This document shows, in pieces, positions 1 through 33,809 of a stretch of DNA of 33,809 nt; position 1 is the stretch's first letter, and each line of letters starts with the position of its first letter. The position numbers and the translations under genes were made by a program. The notes beneath the pieces were generated by a model. It ran no database searches and was not told the origin of the DNA. It saw only the letters and a program-made list of their open reading frames with translations. This stretch comes from a virus, in the IMG/VR virus record IMGVR_UViG_3300025087_000029, positions 1 to 33,809 of that record. One strand, 5' to 3'.

Positions 1-127
1 CGGACATCCTGCTCAGCGGTTTTGGCGAGGAAGACGTCGAAAATCTGATGAGGCCGATCGACATCGACTTCGACGTGGCCTTCGCCAAGATCCCGGACGA
101 CGACGAAACCGAGGAAGGCCAGATGAC
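1..127. repeat. Direct terminal repeat, copy 1 (contig closure)
   Basis: These 127 bases are identical to 33683-33809. A 127-base exact end overlap is what a de Bruijn assembler with k=127 leaves on a circular contig. The unit genome is therefore 33,682 bp, either circular or circularly permuted. The repeat falls inside a coding frame that stays open across the join, which supports artificial overlap rather than a biological terminal repeat. Confidence 0.93.
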
Positions 128-296
128 TTTCAACCTGAGCAGGAGGCAATACAACCGCGTGACCGAGGCCTTGGAAAAGGCGCAGGCGCGCTTCAAGTCG
201 CCGACCGGAAAAAGCGAGGCCGAAACCTGGGGCTTTGCCCTGATAAAGATTTGCCAAAACTATGGAAAACAAAATGACCAAGGTCTCGGAGCTTAG
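1..296 (+). CDS. ParB-like domain protein 1, 3' part (5' part at 33322-33809)
   Basis: This is the C-terminal part of a protein that starts at 33322 and runs through the contig join; codons begin at position 3. The whole protein would be 218 aa. The part visible here follows the ParB-like nuclease/CTPase-type domain and begins with a conserved-looking segment ending SGFGEEDVENLM, also echoed in the next gene (SGFDEVEIQEVI). An acidic stretch rich in D and E follows, then a basic helical tail. The stop codon overlaps the start of the second ParB-like gene by 35 nt, suggesting translational coupling. Phage ParB-like proteins of this sort often sit beside DNA-modifying enzymes. Their exact role is not known from sequence, and a plasmid-type partition function is unlikely for a lone domain without ParA. 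Confidence 0.85.
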   Translation, partial: DILLSGFGEEDVENLMRPIDIDFDVAFAKIPDDDETEEGQMTFNLSRRQYNRVTEALEKAQARFKSPTGKSEAETWGFALIKICQNYGKQNDQGLGA

Positions 297-858
297 GAAG
301 CTGGAGGCCGAATATAACCCGCGCAAGATAACCGAAAAGGCCATGGAAAAACTGAAGGTTAGTATCAAGCGCTTCGGCTTCGTCCTGCCGATCATCGTGA
401 ACAAGCGGACGAACCGGATCGTGGGAGGCCACCAGCGCGTGACAGCTGCCGAGCAACTCGGGATCAAGGAGGTGCCAACATTTTATGTCGACCTAAGCGA
501 AAGCGACGAGATGATTGTCAACTTGGCGCTGAACAAGATCAGGGGGAACTTCGAGGCTGAAAAGCTGAACGCCCTGCTGGACGAATTTATGAAGGAAGGC
601 CTGGACATCGAGGCGTCGGGCTTCGACGAGGTGGAAATCCAGGAAGTGATCGACTCGCTGAAGCTGGACGACGACGAGCCAGCCCCGGACTTCCTGCAGA
701 TTGCCTTCAAGCTAAACGTGCGTGAGCGCAAGAACATTACCGACACCCTGCGCCTGATCAGGAAGACCCAGGACTTGAAACGCTATGAGGACGACAACAG
801 GAATGCGAACGGCAATGCCCTCTTTTTCCTCTGTGATCAATATCTCGAAAGCCTGTAG
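262..858 (+). CDS. ParB-like domain protein 2
   Basis: A 198-aa protein with an N-terminal ParB/sulfiredoxin-like domain. Visible signatures are an NPRKIT segment near residue 20, the motif IVGGHQRVTAAEQLG around residues 53-67, and NLALNKIRGNF near residues 87-97. It is a paralogue of the preceding gene, which has the corresponding NPRTIT, IVGGHQRAEVAQDLG and NLSLNKNGGEF segments. It lacks the CxxC pair of that protein. The first ATG (262) overlaps the upstream gene by 35 nt; a second in-frame ATG at 274 could also serve. It lies 99 nt before the mom-like gene, so the three likely form one modification or regulation operon. ParB-like domains bind DNA and may bind or hydrolyse CTP; the activity here is inferred from the family only. 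Confidence 0.85.
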   Translation: MENKMTKVSELRKLEAEYNPRKITEKAMEKLKVSIKRFGFVLPIIVNKRTNRIVGGHQRVTAAEQLGIKEVPTFYVDLSESDEMIVNLALNKIRGNFEAEKLNALLDEFMKEGLDIEASGFDEVEIQEVIDSLKLDDDEPAPDFLQIAFKLNVRERKNITDTLRLIRKTQDLKRYEDDNRNANGNALFFLCDQYLESL

Positions 859-957: not shown

Positions 958-1767
958 ATGACAAAAGAAAAAAACAATGAGCCGAACACGAGGGGAAAGG
1001 AACGCAACGGTCGCGCCAAGGAATACATCGCGCCGTCCGGACTTTCCGAGGGCGAGAGCGCGAAGGACATGGAGATCAAGACGATCCACGCGAGCATCGC
1101 GAACGAATTCGTGCGCAAGCAACACTACAGCGGAAAAATAGCGGTCAATTCCTGCCTGCACTTCGGCGTCTTTTGGAAAGGCGAGCTGGAAGGCGTCCTG
1201 CAATACGGCAGCTCCCTGGACAAGCGCAAGATCGTGGGGCTGGTAAAGGACACGGGCTGGAACCAATTCCTGGAGCTGAATCGCATGGCATTTTCTCAGG
1301 CGCTTCCAAGAAACTCGGAAAGCCGGGCGCTGGCAATAACAATGAAGCTGATCCGCCGACATCTGCCGAGGATCAAGTGGGTGGTGAGCTTCGCGGACGC
1401 CACGCAATGCGGGAGCGGGACGATTTACCGGGCGTCAGGGTTTGTTTTAACAGGTATTAGGCCAAACTCTAGCATCGTTTATGTTCCAGCAATGAACGAA
1501 GCGTTTACCAAGCTCACCTTCACCACACTAAAAAGCCACGCCGTCTACGATCGAATTAAAAGGGTCATGGGGATCGACATCGTGAAGGAAGCGCGGGGCG
1601 CGGCGAGCATGAAGGCGATCATCGAAAAGCTGGGCGCACAGGTTCTCAAAGGCTACCAAATACGGTATATTTACTTCATAGACCAGACCTATCGGGAAAA
1701 GCTAACGGTTCCTGAGATTCCATTTTCAAGGATTAGGGAATTGAACCTGCCAGACGGGGTGGTCTAA
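958..1767 (+). CDS. mom: Mom-family DNA adenine modification protein
   Basis: A 269-aa protein recognised as Mom-like. Mom of phage Mu converts adenine to the N6-carbamoylmethyl (glycinamide-like) form and protects phage DNA from restriction enzymes. Family segments seen in order are HYSGK (residues 56-60), FGVFWKGELEGVLQYG (69-84), ELNRMAF followed by ALPRNSESRALA (106-126), and FADATQCGSGTIYRASGF (145-162) then LTG. These fit the GNAT-like fold. About 40 N-terminal residues are charged and probably disordered. The start at 958 has no Shine-Dalgarno sequence and follows a stem-loop. The gene ends 5 nt before a tRNA-Gly-like gene, which is unusual. The modification chemistry is inferred from family knowledge, and the donor is not visible from sequence. 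Confidence 0.85.
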   Translation: MTKEKNNEPNTRGKERNGRAKEYIAPSGLSEGESAKDMEIKTIHASIANEFVRKQHYSGKIAVNSCLHFGVFWKGELEGVLQYGSSLDKRKIVGLVKDTGWNQFLELNRMAFSQALPRNSESRALAITMKLIRRHLPRIKWVVSFADATQCGSGTIYRASGFVLTGIRPNSSIVYVPAMNEAFTKLTFTTLKSHAVYDRIKRVMGIDIVKEARGAASMKAIIEKLGAQVLKGYQIRYIYFIDQTYREKLTVPEIPFSRIRELNLPDGVV

Positions 1768-1772
1768 CTGAC

Positions 1773-1847
1773 GGGGCGATCGTTTATCGTTAAGACGGGC
1801 TCCTTCCCGGAGCCACAAGGCGGTTCAACTCCGACCTCGCCCCTCCA
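1773..1847 (+). tRNA. Atypical tRNA-Gly (anticodon UCC) with encoded CCA
   Basis: The acceptor stem is GGGGCGA (1773-1779) with TCGCCCC (1837-1843), 7 perfect pairs, followed by discriminator T (1844) and encoded CCA (1845-1847). The D-stem pairs 1782-1785 with 1793-1796. The anticodon stem GGCTC/GAGCC (1798-1802, 1810-1814) is perfect, and the loop CTTCCCG gives anticodon TCC (1805-1807). The T-stem GGCGG (1819-1823) pairs with CCG and CC (1831-1833, 1835-1836) only if A1834 is bulged; the loop is TTCAACT. The D-loop ATCGTTA lacks the usual GG pair, and base 37 is C rather than a purine. U73, C35 and C36 match known bacterial glycine identity elements. It lies 5 nt after the mom-like stop codon and 8 nt before the small terminase ATG. 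It could read GGA codons, or serve a non-ribosomal role. Confidence 0.78.
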
Positions 1848-2375: not shown

Positions 2376-3914
2376 ATGTTGAGAAAGGTGCATCCAAGGG
2401 ATGCCGCGACCTTTTGGGACAAGCGGTGGCGACTGGAGCATCTTTACAAGATCAAGACCGAGGATCGAAAGCTCAAGGCGCTGGACATGAGGAATCGACC
2501 AGTGCAAGAGATACTTTACTCGTTAGCCGAAGCCAAAAAACACCGTGGCATTAGAATTATCAACCTGAAAGCCCGCAAGGAAGGCGTGACAACCTTCTGG
2601 GGGCTTTATTATTTAGATGACACATTAATCACCCCGAACACCGTCTCGTGTATTTTGGCACACAAAGAAAAGGATGTGCATAAGATTTTTAACATCGTAC
2701 AGACGGCTTATCACAACATGCCAGAAGGGGTGGCACTGCAGAACGGCCGGACTTGGTACAAACCGACGGCAAGTTATGACAACCGCAACGAGCTGGTTTT
2801 TAACAATATAAACTCGATGATTTATGTCGGATTGGAAAGCCGTGGAAACACGAACAACAACCTGCATGTCTCGGAAGCACATCACATACCGAATGCCGAG
2901 GAACGCATGGCGGCCTCTTTAGAATCTGTTCCGAACATCGAAACAGGATCGAACATAACAATTGAAACGACCGGCAATGGAGTGGGTGGTTGGTTTTATG
3001 ATCTATGGCAGGATTCAAAGGCACACAAAAACGAATTCGACCCGCAGTTTTTTCCTTGGTTTTTGAAACCGAGCAACCGTCTGACAATTCCGTCGGACTT
3101 TTACCCGACATCAAAAGAACAAGAGATGGTCGTGCGGGTGGCTGAAACTTACGGAGTAATACTCACACCAGAGCAAATATTCTGGCATCGACAAACCAGT
3201 GCGCGCCAGAAGCGATACATGAATCAAGAACACCCGACATTCGATGACGATGCTTTTCTTTTTTCTGGCTTGCTCGTTTTTGATCCAGAAGTTATTAAAC
3301 GCATACAACCAAAAGAACCCATTCGGATTTTACGAAATGGTACGCGTATTTTTGTAGACCCGAAACACGGCCGGCGTTATGTAGAAGGTGCGGATGTGGC
3401 GGAAGGCATAGGCGGGGATTCAAGCGTGGGCGAGATTTATGACGCCGTTACGCTCGAGCAAGTGGCCGAATATGAATCATCGGCAATAGCACCTGGCGAA
3501 TTTGCTCAGGTTTTGGCGGATAATGGACGACTTTACAACGAAGCACTGATAGCAATCGAACGAAATAACCACGGCCACACGACAATCGACCGGATCAAAA
3601 ACAAATACACAAGACTATTTATGGGGGCGCACTTTGACGAACGAACACAAAAACGGACGGCAAAAATCGGCTGGGAAACCAACTCGCACACACGCGACCT
3701 TATGCTGGATGAAATGCAGGAACTCATAGAGGACGGGACTGTCAAAGTGAATTCTGTTATACTTAAAGGTGAACTAATTACTTTTATCACCAACGAGGAC
3801 GGGAAACGAGAAGCAAAAAGCGGTTTTCACGACGACACAATAATGGCCTCGGCAATCGCAATCAAAGTGGCGAGAATGCCAAAATCTTCATACGGCGTTT
3901 TTGAAATCAACTAA
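2376..3914 (+). CDS. terL: Terminase large subunit (packaging ATPase/nuclease)
   Basis: A 512-aa two-domain motor protein that pumps DNA into the prohead and cuts it. The ATPase half shows a Walker A-like segment KARKEGVTT (residues 65-73) and a Walker B-like segment LHVSEAHHI (about 163-171). The latter uses Ser-Glu in place of the usual Asp-Glu, which is seen in some terminase groups. The RNase H-like nuclease half has GADVAEG with Asp340, IAIERNNHGH in the middle, and FHDDT with Asp486/Asp487. Length is in the normal range (about 420-560 aa). It begins 7 nt after the small subunit stop and ends 5 nt before portal, the usual packaging-portal order. Confidence 0.93.
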   Translation: MLRKVHPRDAATFWDKRWRLEHLYKIKTEDRKLKALDMRNRPVQEILYSLAEAKKHRGIRIINLKARKEGVTTFWGLYYLDDTLITPNTVSCILAHKEKDVHKIFNIVQTAYHNMPEGVALQNGRTWYKPTASYDNRNELVFNNINSMIYVGLESRGNTNNNLHVSEAHHIPNAEERMAASLESVPNIETGSNITIETTGNGVGGWFYDLWQDSKAHKNEFDPQFFPWFLKPSNRLTIPSDFYPTSKEQEMVVRVAETYGVILTPEQIFWHRQTSARQKRYMNQEHPTFDDDAFLFSGLLVFDPEVIKRIQPKEPIRILRNGTRIFVDPKHGRRYVEGADVAEGIGGDSSVGEIYDAVTLEQVAEYESSAIAPGEFAQVLADNGRLYNEALIAIERNNHGHTTIDRIKNKYTRLFMGAHFDERTQKRTAKIGWETNSHTRDLMLDEMQELIEDGTVKVNSVILKGELITFITNEDGKREAKSGFHDDTIMASAIAIKVARMPKSSYGVFEIN

Positions 3915-7564: not shown

Positions 7565-8668
7565 ATGGACTTAACAGAACTTTTGAAACAAGCCGGGGTG
7601 GGCAAAGATTTGGAAAAGAAGGCCAACGAGGTGATGCATACCACCAACACTGGCTACGGTGCGGAATTTATCCCTGATGAGGTTTTTGCGAGCGAGATCT
7701 TCGATCTTATCCCGCAACGCGCCCGCCTTCTTCCATTGCTTCCCGGCAACCACGGCACAAAACTGCCGAAGATTTATACTGCTCCGGTTATTGGCCTTTC
7801 AGTAGGCGACCTCTTGTTCCAAGGTAAGAACGAATGGACAACTGGCACAGCCAGCCAAACCGAAGACGACCACAGCCAAAGCAAAGCTGCCACCCAACAG
7901 GTTACACTTACACAAGTGCCTTTTATTTGCGAAGTGGATATCTCCGATGCACAGCTTAAATACAATGCGGTTAATACCGAGGAGTATGTGAAGCGTCGCA
8001 TCGCCGAAGGTATGGCCTATACTGTCGACTCCGTGATTATCAACGGCGATAGCGAATCTGGTGGAACAGGCAATGTCAACTCTGATGACCAAGCCCCAGC
8101 CACCACATACGCAGCTTACGGTGCCGCTTTGTACCATGCCACAATGATCGATCACGGTATCCGAGAGAGAGCTATCAACGGAACATATACTTCCGACCTC
8201 GGAACCTTGGCCGCTGATGACTACTCAACATTGCTCGGTATCCTTGGCGAATATGCGGAACGACCAGAGGACTGCTTGTTCATTCAACCAGCATCCGTTA
8301 CAGCCAAAACACGCACATTGGATGAATTCGAGGATGCCCAAAAATATGGCAACAACAATTTGATTGCCAAAGGCATTATCCCGACACCATACGGCGTGGA
8401 TATTCTCCAACACCGCGCGGTACCTAAAACCGAAGCTGACGGTAAGAAATCAGCAACGGCCGGAAACAACACCAAGGGTCAAATCTTGGCTTTGTACAAA
8501 CCAGCCATTCAGTACGGATTCGGTCAAGACTTTTTCTTGGAAGTCGTTCGCAATCCTGGTTACGGCTGGCGCTTAGTGGCTACCTTCGACTTCGCATTTA
8601 CGATCGTCGATTCAGGAGCCTCTCTGACCGATCCAACCGTTGCCGCTGGTATCAATGTGACCGTTTAG
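7565..8668 (+). CDS. Major capsid protein (HK97 fold)
   Basis: A 367-aa protein directly after the protease, in the standard HK97 order. Supporting segments are AEFIPDEVFASEIFDLIPQR near residues 33-52, where the mature subunit usually begins, then TQVPFICEVDISDAQLKYN, IAEGMAYTVDSVIINGD and the C-terminal domain ending in ATFDFAFTIVDSGASL. The N-terminus (first 25 residues) is short and helical, so any delta domain is small. This fits a scaffold supplied elsewhere, for example by the protease tail. Translation should be very strong, yet no Shine-Dalgarno sequence is present before ATG 7565 (taatccatATG). A GC-rich hairpin follows the stop. Confidence 0.88.
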   Translation: MDLTELLKQAGVGKDLEKKANEVMHTTNTGYGAEFIPDEVFASEIFDLIPQRARLLPLLPGNHGTKLPKIYTAPVIGLSVGDLLFQGKNEWTTGTASQTEDDHSQSKAATQQVTLTQVPFICEVDISDAQLKYNAVNTEEYVKRRIAEGMAYTVDSVIINGDSESGGTGNVNSDDQAPATTYAAYGAALYHATMIDHGIRERAINGTYTSDLGTLAADDYSTLLGILGEYAERPEDCLFIQPASVTAKTRTLDEFEDAQKYGNNNLIAKGIIPTPYGVDILQHRAVPKTEADGKKSATAGNNTKGQILALYKPAIQYGFGQDFFLEVVRNPGYGWRLVATFDFAFTIVDSGASLTDPTVAAGINVTV

Positions 8669-25463: not shown

Positions 25464-26534
25464 ATGAAATACTTCTCAACATTCAGCGGTGTTGGAGGGT
25501 TTGAAATAGGAATACAAAATGCTTATGCAAAGAATTGGCGGATGGAAAATAAAGAAGGATCGGATCTTTGCATGGAACGCACGAGATCCGAAGAAGGGAA
25601 CGGTACAGGAGAGTCTGATTTACGTCCTAAACGCGATAGTGGATTCCCTGACTCGCAATCCCCCTCGTGTATTGGTTTCTCCGAGATCGACAAATATGCC
25701 TCCGCCGTCCTTAAATATCGATTCCCTAACACCCCAAATTATGGCGACATTGAAAAAATCAATTGGAGTGAAATACCCGACTTTGACCTACTCGTCGGTG
25801 GAAGCCCGTGCCAGGATTTCAGCGTGGCTGGAAAACGTAAAGGCATTGGCGGAGCAAGGTCGGGATTATTTTTTGAGTACGTCCGTGCGCTCAAACAAAA
25901 ACGTCCTGACTTTTTTATCTGGGAGAATGTTAAAGGCGTTCTCTCGATCAATCGAGGATTCGATTTTGCAGCAATCCTCTCTGAGTTTTCCGAAGCAGGG
26001 TATTCTCTCTGGTGGCAAGTTCTCAACGCCAAAGATTTCGGTGTCCCTCAAAACCGAGAGCGCATCTTTGTCGTCGGTTCTCGAAACACAAGTGCCAGAG
26101 AAGTATTTTTTGAGCGACAAAATGACAAAATACATTCTATCCAGGATGAAACAGACGGACGATGGCCACAAGCCGAAGTTTGTGGAACTCTCAAAGGATC
26201 AAACATGAAGGCGGATAATACTTTCGTCATCCACAACATCTATGGCGGATTTAAAGAAAAGACCGTCCGAGAATTCCACGACTTCTCTCCAACACTCAGA
26301 ACGCCAAAAGGTGGCGGTCACATTCCAAATCTTACGAACGGAAAAACGATCCGCCGTTTTACTCCGACCGAATGTGAAAGGCTGATGAGCTGGCCAGACG
26401 ACTGGACGAAATACGGAATAGACGAACAAGGCAAAAAAATGGAAATACCAGACGGCCAACGATACAAACTTTGTGGCAATGGGGTGGTGAGCAGGGTGGT
26501 GGCCGAGGTTGTAAAAGCCCATTTATCCACATGA
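25464..26534 (+). CDS. dcm: DNA (cytosine-5) methyltransferase
   Basis: A 356-aa C5-cytosine methyltransferase. Motif I is FSGVGGFE (residues 7-14). The SAM-binding loop is followed by a non-conserved, hydrophilic insert of about 45 residues (about 22-67), then SEIDKYA (about 73-79). Motif IV is GGSPCQDFS with catalytic Cys116, motif VI is WENVKG (Glu154), motif VIII is QNRERIFVVG (from 196), and the C-terminal motifs are RRFTPTECERLMSWP and LCGNGVVSRVVAEVV. The target sequence is not visible. With Mom it gives the phage a second DNA-modifying activity, likely against host restriction. A second reading frame of 229 codons is open inside the gene (25519-26208). The end carries a DnaA box. Confidence 0.94.
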   Translation: MKYFSTFSGVGGFEIGIQNAYAKNWRMENKEGSDLCMERTRSEEGNGTGESDLRPKRDSGFPDSQSPSCIGFSEIDKYASAVLKYRFPNTPNYGDIEKINWSEIPDFDLLVGGSPCQDFSVAGKRKGIGGARSGLFFEYVRALKQKRPDFFIWENVKGVLSINRGFDFAAILSEFSEAGYSLWWQVLNAKDFGVPQNRERIFVVGSRNTSAREVFFERQNDKIHSIQDETDGRWPQAEVCGTLKGSNMKADNTFVIHNIYGGFKEKTVREFHDFSPTLRTPKGGGHIPNLTNGKTIRRFTPTECERLMSWPDDWTKYGIDEQGKKMEIPDGQRYKLCGNGVVSRVVAEVVKAHLST

Positions 26535-32927: not shown

Positions 32928-33212
32928 ATGTTAAGAATTAAAAAAACTTACGCAAAGACAAAAGTGGCAGGCAAGACCGAATACCAACGAATAGCCAAAG
33001 CCCCGCGCAAAATGAATCTGGACGGCGCGTGGTCGATAATGGAATTAAGAACCGACAAGGCAGGGCGGACACGGTGGGAATTGATAGCTGATTTTTACGA
33101 CGGCGATCCGAGACACGAAAGCACCATGGCGAATATGATCAAACTTTTTCTTGAGCAAGACACTGAAAAACTAAAAGCGAGATTTGGAATTAATGCTTCG
33201 TTCAATGAATAG
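32928..33212 (+). CDS. Unknown protein, 94 aa
   Basis: The last gene before the ParB-like operon. It is basic at first (MLRIKKTYAKTKVAGK), then a beta-type core (AWSIMELRTDKAGRTRWELI) and a helical tail (ANMIKLFLEQDTEKLKARFG). No family is recognised. It is in the early operon 3 nt after the RusA-like gene. A weak terminator and a structured leader follow. Confidence 0.62.
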   Translation: MLRIKKTYAKTKVAGKTEYQRIAKAPRKMNLDGAWSIMELRTDKAGRTRWELIADFYDGDPRHESTMANMIKLFLEQDTEKLKARFGINASFNE

Positions 33213-33321
33213 TGGGTTACACCCCCGCACGAGTGGGCGATTTTTTAACCTTTGGTTCCTCCATACTCCAAAGGTCTCGTCCATTCTTGCTGGAGTGCAA
33301 GCGGTTACTATTTTTGACAAT
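33213..33321 (+). promoter_or_regulatory. Structured leader of the ParB-mom-tRNA operon
   Basis: A small hairpin (33224-33228 with 33233-33237) followed by TTTTTT (33241-33246) forms a weak terminator. A second stem, 33248-33255 with 33268-33275 (8 perfect pairs, 12-nt loop), competes with ACTCCA/TGGAGT (33265-33270 with 33291-33296), so two folds are possible, as in an attenuator. TTGACA at 33315-33320 abuts the ATG and cannot drive this gene. No clear promoter is seen. Confidence 0.5.
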
Positions 33322-33809
33322 ATGCAAACCGAAAAACGACAACTCAAGGATCTGCGCAAGGCGGACTACAACCCAAGGACGATCACGCCCGAAAGCCGGG
33401 AAGCCCTGGCGAAAAACCTGGCGAAGTACGGCCTCCTGGAGCCGATCGTGGTCAACGACCACAAATGCCCGAAATGTGGCGACCGACGGAACGTGATCGT
33501 GGGCGGACACCAACGGGCGGAAGTCGCCCAAGACCTGGGCATAACCGAGGCCGAGGTGTCGCTGGTAAACCTGCACATCGCGTATGAAAAGCTACTCAAC
33601 CTCTCACTGAACAAGAACGGCGGGGAATTCGACACCCCGAAGCTCAAGCGGGTGGTCAAGAAGATCACTGAGGAAGCTCCCGCGGACATCCTGCTCAGCG
33701 GTTTTGGCGAGGAAGACGTCGAAAATCTGATGAGGCCGATCGACATCGACTTCGACGTGGCCTTCGCCAAGATCCCGGACGACGACGAAACCGAGGAAGG
33801 CCAGATGAC
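33322..33809 (+). CDS. ParB-like domain protein 1, 5' part (continues at 1-296)
   Basis: The first 162 codons of a 218-aa protein whose frame continues at position 3 of the window. Visible signatures: LRKADYNPRTITPE (residues 9-22), YGLLEPIVVN (about 36-45), a CxxC pair (KCPKCG, about 48-53), VIVGGHQRAEVAQDLG (about 58-73) and NLSLNKNGG. This is the ParB/sulfiredoxin-like domain. The CxxC within the domain is not shared by the second copy and may bind zinc with other residues. The two paralogues likely act together beside Mom. Confidence 0.87.
   Translation, partial: MQTEKRQLKDLRKADYNPRTITPESREALAKNLAKYGLLEPIVVNDHKCPKCGDRRNVIVGGHQRAEVAQDLGITEAEVSLVNLHIAYEKLLNLSLNKNGGEFDTPKLKRVVKKITEEAPADILLSGFGEEDVENLMRPIDIDFDVAFAKIPDDDETEEGQM
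33683..33809. repeat. Direct terminal repeat, copy 2 (contig closure)
   Basis: Identical to bases 1-127. It marks where the circular genome was cut to make the linear window, so bases 33683-33809 are counted twice. Confidence 0.93.

What the first reader, a model, noticed from the sequence alone, without database searches (positions are those of the whole stretch)
958..1847. Mom-like DNA-modifier gene abutted by a glycine tRNA that looks built to avoid the ribosome
Seen: 5 nt after the mom-like stop is a tRNA with UCC anticodon, U73 and encoded CCA, but with no D-loop GG, a bulged T-stem (A1834) and C37. Known: Mom adds a glycinamide-like group to adenine and has a GNAT-type fold; GNAT-fold Fem ligases of staphylococci use special tRNA-Gly(UCC) species lacking D-loop GG and poor in elongation-factor binding. 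Inference: the phage may encode its own glycyl carrier so that glycyl-tRNA is the donor for adenine modification. A simpler reading is a GGA-codon helper tRNA that happens to sit here. The unusual body and exact adjacency make the donor idea worth testing.
Basis: partly seen in the sequence, partly recalled or inferred. Interest (0 to 1): 0.92.

Follow-up and report, generated by a model that had tools for sequence, protein, structure and literature searches.

The report
Dedicated glycine tRNA beside Mom DNA-modifier
Many phages that carry the DNA-modifying enzyme Mom also carry, next to or inside its gene, a degenerate glycine tRNA that keeps what the glycine-charging enzyme reads but loses much of what the ribosome needs, which suggests that glycine on this tRNA is the raw material for the DNA modification.

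Summary
The window holds a Mom gene (958-1767; Pfam Mom, 168 bits) and, 5 nt on, a tRNA-Gly(UCC) (1773-1847) without D-loop GG, with C37 and a bulged T-stem. A covariance model finds the same RNA at 61 of 74 close Mom relatives (24 of them its seeds) and within 200 nt of Mom at 69 of 80 loci of a second survey. A scan for the bulged T-arm alone gave 120 loci: 112 have Mom within 300 nt on the same strand; the unbulged control motif gave 1 of 123 matches. Stems covary strongly. The six published bacterial glycine identity elements (G1-C72, C2-G71, G3-C70, U73, C35, C36) are nearly invariant, position 34 varies, while U8, U33, D-arm, T-loop and T-stem decay. The RNA lies 3' or 5' of mom, sometimes on the other strand, and in 93 of 141 dereplicated 3' pairs inside mom's reading frame. 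Best reading: a phage-encoded, GlyRS-charged, non-ribosomal tRNA that donates glycine to Mom (about 0.8). Charging and transfer are inferred, not shown. The Mu clade of Mom lacks it. I found no report of it, but most preprints and subscription papers could not be searched.

The parts
958..1767 (+). mom-like gene, 269 aa; R109, S122, D147, Y157 invariant in the alignment; S122 aligns with Mu Mom position 124, the serine changed to alanine in the inactive crystal form 8bv8
   Evidence: AF2 model pLDDT 85.5 best matches 8bv8, Z 22.1 over 203 residues
1773..1847 (+). mom-associated tRNA-Gly(UCC)-like RNA gene with encoded CCA
   Evidence: ARAGORN; covariance model R1 72.6 bits, E 6.4e-15 (the window is one of the 25 seed sequences); fold
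1805..1807 (+). anticodon UCC (C37 follows at 1808)
   Evidence: C35 C36 conservation
1819..1836 (+). T-arm GGCGG-UUCAACU-CCGACC with bulged A1834; basis of the motif used for the scans
1844..1847 (+). discriminator U73 and encoded CCA
   Evidence: U73 in 93 of 97 dereplicated Mom-anchored RNAs
262..858 (+). ParB_N-domain gene upstream of mom; the same ParB - mom - tRNA - terminase order is seen in Psychrobacter phage Y8A
1856..2368 (+). terminase small subunit gene directly downstream of the tRNA
   Evidence: phrog_4102

Best explanation
The RNA at 1773-1847 is a dedicated, non-ribosomal glycine tRNA that belongs to the Mom system. Shown: it is a widespread RNA family with conserved, covarying cloverleaf pairing, linked to Mom genes in many branches of the Mom tree; it keeps the bacterial GlyRS identity set and an NCC anticodon; as a family it loses U33, U8, D-loop GG or the whole D-arm, T55 and a regular T-stem. 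Inferred: host GlyRS charges it; the T-stem bulge, in the stem that EF-Tu grips (recalled), and the damaged core keep Gly-tRNA out of translation; U73 spares it from the deacylase DTD; and Mom, a GNAT-fold enzyme, takes the glycyl group from it to N6 of adenine in phage DNA. Proposed chemistry (inference): acyl transfer gives Ade-NH-CO-CH2-NH2, an isomer of the known Mom product Ade-NH-CH2-CO-NH2 (structure recalled); attack of the glycyl amine on C6 and release of the old N6 (a Smiles-type shift) would convert one into the other without a further reagent. Mom proteins without a phage tRNA, such as Mu's, would use host Gly-tRNA-Gly.
For: Recurrence: 61 of 74 (two of these, L010 and L011, behind a second mom copy) and 69 of 80 Mom loci. 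Reverse test: 112 of 120 T-arm loci have Mom within 300 nt on the same strand, 1 at 1.3 kb, 7 without, 4 of those within 360 nt of an end of the stretch held; control 1 of 123 matches, 0 of the 37 with a pairing acceptor stem; bacterial genomes 14 of 22 matches with a pairing acceptor within 300 nt of Mom, 2 farther, 6 without Mom in the stretch held. Proteins downstream of 5'-placed RNAs are Pfam Mom in 8 of 8 sampled, and so is the L088 protein. Covariation: 98.4% of cells paired, 549 double changes against a mean of 144 in shuffles. Identity: C35 C36 in 90 of 90, U73 88 of 91, G1 and C2 91 of 91, G3 89 of 91 in 91 dereplicated RNAs of the T-arm scan; U73 93 of 97, GCG start 88 of 97 in the Mom-anchored set: the published bacterial set (PMC9976931, passages). 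Decay: U at 33 in 54 of 90 and 28 of 81; T-stem bulged in 89 of 97, D region short in 24 of 97. In trans: other strand at L455, L472, L473, L477, 5' of mom in 32 clusters, a gene-length reading frame between in L088. Mom is GNAT-fold and matches Mu Mom.
Against: No charging, transfer or expression was measured. Mom of Mu, JD024, PAN70, pAEv1818, Liebe, EfaS_159 and TCUEAP3 comes with no R1 hit in the whole genome; PMBT69 and Melnitz-3 have only weak hits (31.7; 42.3 and 37.1 bits) 6 kb, 4.5 kb and 0.9 kb away, in or near the range of ordinary tRNAs; 13 of 74 and 7 of 80 surveyed loci have no hit (2 of the 13 have no sequence beyond mom). P8625 has the RNA but no Pfam Mom in the genome, and L340 has none on either side. 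Some members keep U33, D-loop GG or an unbulged T-stem (6 of 97). The window RNA has 5 of 6 identity elements (G2-C71). Thermus GlyRS also reads G10, U16 and C50-G64, which this family does not keep as such. Apart from Mu Mom, the nearest folds are CoA-type GNATs. Simple glycyl transfer gives an isomer of the reported Mom base, so a rearrangement is needed.
Confidence: 0.8

Rival explanations
1. A codon-helper tRNA: it reads GGA/GGG on phage ribosomes and sits beside mom by chance or by late-gene co-expression.
For: U8, U33 and a UCC anticodon in the window; ARAGORN accepts it; 211 of 635 glycine codons in 28 window ORFs that I chose are GGA.
Against: Linkage to Mom; N34 is U, A or C (G in L060 by reading) and the triplet is always glycine's; U33, U8, D-arm, T55 and T-stem decay across the family while glycine identity holds; GGC is as common as GGA in the window (219 of 635).
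Confidence: 0.04
2. A cis element: a tRNA mimic in mom mRNA that binds GlyRS or RNase P and controls Mom level, with no donor role.
For: In 93 of 141 dereplicated 3' pairs mom's first in-frame stop lies after the RNA, so maturation would cut mom mRNA; Mom is reported toxic when artificially expressed (PMC12707154, passages).
Against: It also occurs on the opposite strand (4 loci), 5' of mom, in tandem (Y8A, L446) and beyond another reading frame (L088); a purely cis element need not keep the glycine identity elements.
Confidence: 0.07
3. The RNA is a substrate or structural cofactor of Mom (Mom modifies or needs it) rather than a glycine carrier.
For: The same linkage; Mom acts on nucleic acid.
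Against: What is held constant is glycine identity, pairing and the T-arm, which points to aminoacylation; a mere scaffold would not need C35, C36 and U73.
Confidence: 0.05
4. A decoy or backup tRNA for anti-phage defence (anticodon nucleases), or an attachment-site relic of integration into a host tRNA gene.
For: Phages do carry tRNAs for both reasons (recalled).
Against: Tied to Mom and to glycine in the sets examined. Linkage to integrases was not tested.
Confidence: 0.03

Closest known systems
Phage Mu Mom and the Mom family (Pfam PF25680; 8bv8 structure)
   Same: The window protein is a Mom by Pfam, PHROGs, fold and conserved serine.
   Different: Mu and its clade have no such tRNA. A 2021 survey gives the donor as an acyl-CoA such as glycyl-CoA (PMC7824862, passages); no tRNA is mentioned in the passages seen.
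Staphylococcal FemX/FemA/FemB with non-proteogenic tRNA-Gly (recalled)
   Same: GNAT-fold enzyme, tRNA-Gly lacking D-loop GG and poor for EF-Tu.
   Different: Acceptor there is a peptidoglycan precursor; here it would be a DNA base. The RNA here goes further (bulged T-stem, lost D-arm, 8-nt anticodon loops), is phage-encoded and is linked to or inside the enzyme gene.
Ordinary phage-encoded tRNAs
   Same: Cloverleaf, sometimes encoded CCA.
   Different: Glycine only, tied to one enzyme gene. ARAGORN reports it at 13 of the 61 first-survey loci where R1 finds it; the authors of Y8A state that no tRNA genes were identified (PMC10434257, passages).
Other aminoacyl-tRNA-dependent transferases (Aat, ATE1, MprF; recalled)
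   Same: Use aminoacyl-tRNA outside translation.
   Different: Acceptors are proteins or lipids, not DNA; they use host elongator tRNAs.

Membership tests
Mom family (PF25680) | Profile match above the curated cut-off | tested here: met
   168 bits against 27.1
Mom family (PF25680) | Mom/GNAT fold and the serine that is mutated in inactive Mu Mom | tested here: met
   8bv8 Z 22.1, 203 aligned, 4.2 A; S122 aligned with position 124 of 8bv8
Mom family (PF25680) | Makes N6-carbamoylmethyl-adenine in DNA | not testable with these tools
   Needs nucleoside mass spectrometry
Bacterial tRNA-Gly (glycine identity) | U73, G1-C72, C2-G71, G3-C70, C35, C36 | tested here: met
   Family: 90 of 90 CC, 88 of 91 U73, 91 of 91 G1 and C2, 89 of 91 G3 (list from PMC9976931). 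The window itself meets 5 of 6: it has G2-C71
Elongator tRNA | U33, U8, D-loop GG, T54-T55, regular 5-bp T-stem | tested here: not met
   Family: U33 54 of 90, U8 38 of 91, T55 40 of 91; T-stem bulged 89 of 97. Window: U8, U33 and T54-T55 kept; no GG, bulged A1834, C37
Fem-type non-proteogenic tRNA-Gly (works like) | Glycylated but poorly bound by EF-Tu, used by a GNAT-fold transferase | not testable with these tools
   Anatomy fits; needs charging and EF-Tu binding assays
Fem-type non-proteogenic tRNA-Gly (membership) | Partner is a Fem ligase and the acceptor is a peptidoglycan precursor | tested here: not met
   Partner is Mom; Mom is the only Pfam match of the window gene at E 0.001. The acceptor was not tested

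The most novel reading that the evidence does not exclude
tRNA-dependent DNA modification: phages have evolved a private tRNA-Gly, often encoded inside the 3' end of the enzyme's own reading frame, that is charged by host GlyRS, hidden from EF-Tu and the ribosome, and spent by Mom to glycylate adenine in DNA. Two further guesses, not included in the odds: a spontaneous or Mom-assisted N-to-N rearrangement gives the known glycinamide base; and cutting the tRNA out of the mom transcript destroys the message, so carrier and toxic enzyme are made at each other's expense.
Probability: 0.6. Interest if true: 0.97.

Novelty: categorically new. Interest (0 to 1): 0.93.

Why it matters
The donor used by Mom, a long-known hypermodifying DNA enzyme, is not established in what I could read; a 2021 survey names glycyl-CoA only as an example. 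A conserved glycine tRNA tied to Mom makes the question directly testable and would be the first aminoacyl-tRNA-dependent modification of DNA that I know of. It would also define a large, overlooked class of non-ribosomal tRNAs: ARAGORN reports 13 of the 61 found in the first survey, and many lie inside mom's reading frame.

Tried and rejected
Rfam: no family reached gathering in the window; only tRNA-Sec at 17.5 bits below threshold. A full-sensitivity R1 search of 11 loci without a hit found no convincing hidden copy (best 17.4 bits, judged chance). Mu, JD024 and further cultured Mom phages: no copy. phiEf11, HGTV-1, JeffCo, LP-114 and E21: no mom-adjacent R1 hit within 1.5 kb; phiEf11's only hit is an ordinary tRNA-Asn. 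blastn with three members against phages found Y8A and P8625, otherwise short or weak matches judged chance. Literature: the ten searches listed no title or abstract start that links Mom with a tRNA; two searches returned 0 papers. Most preprints and subscription papers are not held; the 2020 Mom mechanism paper and a 2009 prediction paper are not held, and I did not see the paper behind 8bv8. Passages searched in PMC6483171 and PMC8670742 gave nothing useful.

I considered whether mom's C-terminal peptide, rather than the RNA, is conserved: the frame differs between lineages (phase 2: 69, phase 1: 45, phase 0: 27 of 141) and the RNA also occurs outside mom, so the RNA is the conserved thing. 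The open-frame excess (105 of 141 against 113 of 282 in the other frames) is confounded by relatedness and absent in phase 0.

Limits of counts. R1 was seeded with 25 RNAs: the window and 24 from L001-L074, so one search is partly circular. Sets overlap: 9 of the 80 second-survey loci repeat contigs of the first, at least seven T-arm-scan contigs recur in the second survey, and L184 is the contig of seed L002. The 74 loci include near-identical contigs (54 distinct downstream stretches). Ordinary tRNAs can reach 37.7 bits with R1 (L050, a tRNA-Asn), so hits of about 30-45 bits rest also on position and the NCC anticodon. In one search I dropped L154, L158, the second L167 hit and L181 before dereplication; its D-loop GG count is crude (30 of 67 with a D-arm against 30 of 37 controls) and several control sequences parse badly (T33 in 20 of 37). 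In 'pairing acceptor' is the only tRNA criterion; L217, just below that cut-off, looks tRNA-like by eye and lies 47 nt from a Mom, so the bulge is not strictly required. In one search my parser placed 81 of 97 anticodons as NCC; the other 16 I read by eye as NCC (CCC, 6-nt loops or shifted stems). The tree includes loci chosen for having the RNA, and many of its splits have low support. For some searches I left out contigs that looked near-duplicate, opposite-strand and 5' cases.

Full report
WHAT IS THERE. The window is one phage genome with a 127-nt terminal direct repeat. Gene order at the left is ParB-like (262-858), mom (958-1767), tRNA (1773-1847), small terminase (1856-2368), large terminase (2376-3914). 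The mom product is a Pfam Mom at 168 bits. Its AF2 model (47 sequences, pLDDT 85.5) matches the Mu Mom crystal structure 8bv8 at Z 22.1 over 203 residues, then CoA-type GNATs at Z about 12-14. The serine mutated in the inactive Mu Mom crystal aligns with S122.

IT RECURS. A protein search brought 74 Mom relatives from IMG/VR. ARAGORN saw a tRNA right behind mom in 13 of 74 (10 called glycine, 3 called undetermined with 'cacc'), and other tRNAs in one locus, L050. A hand scan showed many more that ARAGORN misses. A covariance model R1 built on 25 RNAs finds the RNA in 61 of 74 loci, 24 of them seeds, and in L010 and L011 behind a second mom copy; of the 13 without a hit, two (L050, L065) have no sequence beyond mom. 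A second, alignment-based Mom survey kept 80 loci, 9 of which repeat earlier contigs; 69 of 80 have the RNA within 200 nt of the Mom match, four more have a hit farther away, seven have none.

REVERSE TEST. I scanned IMG/VR for the bulged T-arm alone. Mom lies within 300 nt on the same strand in 112 of 120 (77 upstream, 35 downstream or abutting), at 1.3 kb in one, and is absent in seven (L134, L154, L158, L165, L181, L185, L191); four of these are within 360 nt of an end of the stretch held and two (L181, L191) are the ones without a full R1 match. Eight of eight sampled downstream proteins, and the L088 protein, pass Pfam's Mom cut-off. The control motif without the bulge gave 123 matches in 120 stretches: one (L217) lies within 300 nt of a Mom; none of the 37 with a pairing acceptor stem does. 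In bacterial genomes the bulged motif gave 119 matches: 22 with a pairing acceptor, of which 14 have Mom within 300 nt, two have it farther and six have none in the stretch held (L329, L330 and L347 lie within about 200 nt of the end of the stretch; L416 gives no R1 match); the other 97 have no Mom in the stretch.

WHAT IS CONSERVED. On A2 (101 matches from 100 of the 120 loci) 98.4% of base-pair cells form standard pairs and 549 cells carry double changes against a mean of 144 in shuffles; acceptor (6 of 7 pairs), D (4 of 4) and anticodon (5 of 5) stems have compensatory changes. In 91 dereplicated RNAs of the T-arm scan: G1 91, C2 91, G3 89, C35 and C36 90 of 90, U73 88 of 91; N34 is U 61, A 24, C 4. 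In 97 dereplicated Mom-anchored RNAs: U73 93, GCG start 88, NCC in 81 by parser and the other 16 by eye. These are the six bacterial glycine identity elements listed in PMC9976931 (passages). U73 is also the base that protects Gly-tRNA-Gly from the deacylase DTD (PMC6097841, abstract), which matters for a tRNA that EF-Tu, the other protector (PMC4880308, abstract), would not shield.

WHAT IS LOST. U33 is kept in 54 of 90 or 28 of 81; U8 in 38 of 91; position 55 is G in 51 of 91. The T-stem is bulged in 89 of 97, the bulge being A in 84; the D region is under 16 nt in 24 of 97. Some anticodon loops have 8 nt. Charging could survive this; use by EF-Tu and the ribosome should not (established tRNA biology, recalled).

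IT ACTS IN TRANS. In 223 clusters of Mom sequences the RNA is 3' on the same strand in 147, 5' in 32, 3' on the opposite strand in 3, not found in 37, undecided at an edge in 4 (the sample is partly chosen for the RNA). RNA-bearing groups are found in both halves of the midpoint-rooted tree. A clade of eight tips, seven of them named phages including Mu, has none (Mu is labelled 'edge' there but has no hit in its whole genome). In L088 a gene-length reading frame lies between mom and the RNA. Y8A and L446 carry tandem pairs. These facts argue against a purely cis role.

HIDDEN IN THE GENE. Of 141 dereplicated same-strand 3' pairs, mom's first in-frame stop lies after the RNA in 93, inside it in 27, before it in 21. 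In 70 of the 93 it comes about 6-26 nt after the RNA, and in the 45 tails printed the RNA mostly follows a Mom tail like GAGMYKG. Mom's frame is open through the RNA in 105 of 141, the other frames in 113 of 282; by phase the excess is clear in phases 1 and 2 and absent in phase 0, and relatedness confounds the p-values. This may explain why annotators overlook it and suggests coupling between tRNA maturation and mom mRNA loss (inference).

CULTURED EXAMPLES. Psychrobacter phage vB_PmaS_Y8A has two D-armless copies (7786-7853 and 7858-7926) between its first Mom gene and terminase, and a second Mom gene at its right end without a copy; [quoted passage not shown] Arthrobacter phages BarretLemon and Zartrosa carry one that overlaps the end of mom, with an unbulged T-stem by reading. 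P8625 has one beside a ParB-methyltransferase gene but no Pfam Mom.

MECHANISM. I take the RNA to be a GlyRS-charged, non-ribosomal carrier whose glycyl group Mom transfers to adenine N6. Shown: linkage, structure, glycine identity, loss of ribosomal features, Mom membership. Inferred: charging, EF-Tu avoidance, transfer, rearrangement to the reported base. The assumption stated in the paper I could read is an acyl-CoA such as glycyl-CoA (PMC7824862, passages). Rivals and their odds are given in their own section.

NOVELTY. I found no report of a Mom-associated tRNA; the library lacks most preprints and subscription papers, so prior description cannot be excluded.

Noticed in passing
L010, L011, L006: Two mom genes in tandem; in L010 and L011 the tRNA follows the second copy.
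   Followed up: partly
L516 1995-2070 (Verrucomicrobia phage P8625, NC_029047.1): Orphan mom-type tRNA inside annotated ORF gp04, next to a ParB-N6-methyltransferase gene, with no Pfam Mom in the genome: relic or other partner.
   Followed up: partly
L195 / OQ059336.1 7786-7926: Two unannotated tandem D-armless tRNA-Gly-like genes in cultured phage Y8A, which has two Mom genes.
   Followed up: yes
L543 (Halogranum tailed virus 1, NC_021328.1): An archaeal virus carries a Mom 50.9% identical to that of L117, whose tRNA lies 5' of mom; no R1 hit within 1.5 kb.
   Followed up: partly
L329, L340, L367 (MAG contigs titled Bacillota): Three similar mom-type tRNAs without a Mom in the stretch held; L340 is covered on both sides.
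   Followed up: partly
L217 8731-8747: An unbulged tRNA-like element 47 nt from a Mom gene, found in the control scan.
   Followed up: no
L521 / MZ577098.1 68570-68643 and 74645-74721: Methylophilales phage Melnitz-3 has R1 hits of 37.1 and 42.3 bits 0.9 and 4.5 kb from its Mom gene; ordinary tRNAs or diverged relatives.
   Followed up: no
window 25464-26534: A C5-cytosine DNA methyltransferase gene (Pfam 222 bits): the phage carries a second DNA-modifying enzyme.
   Followed up: no
window 1-127 and 33683-33809: A 127-nt terminal direct repeat suggests a circularly permuted, complete genome; a second, weakly ParB-like ORF (33184-33807, 22 bits, under Pfam's cut-off) runs off the right end.
   Followed up: partly
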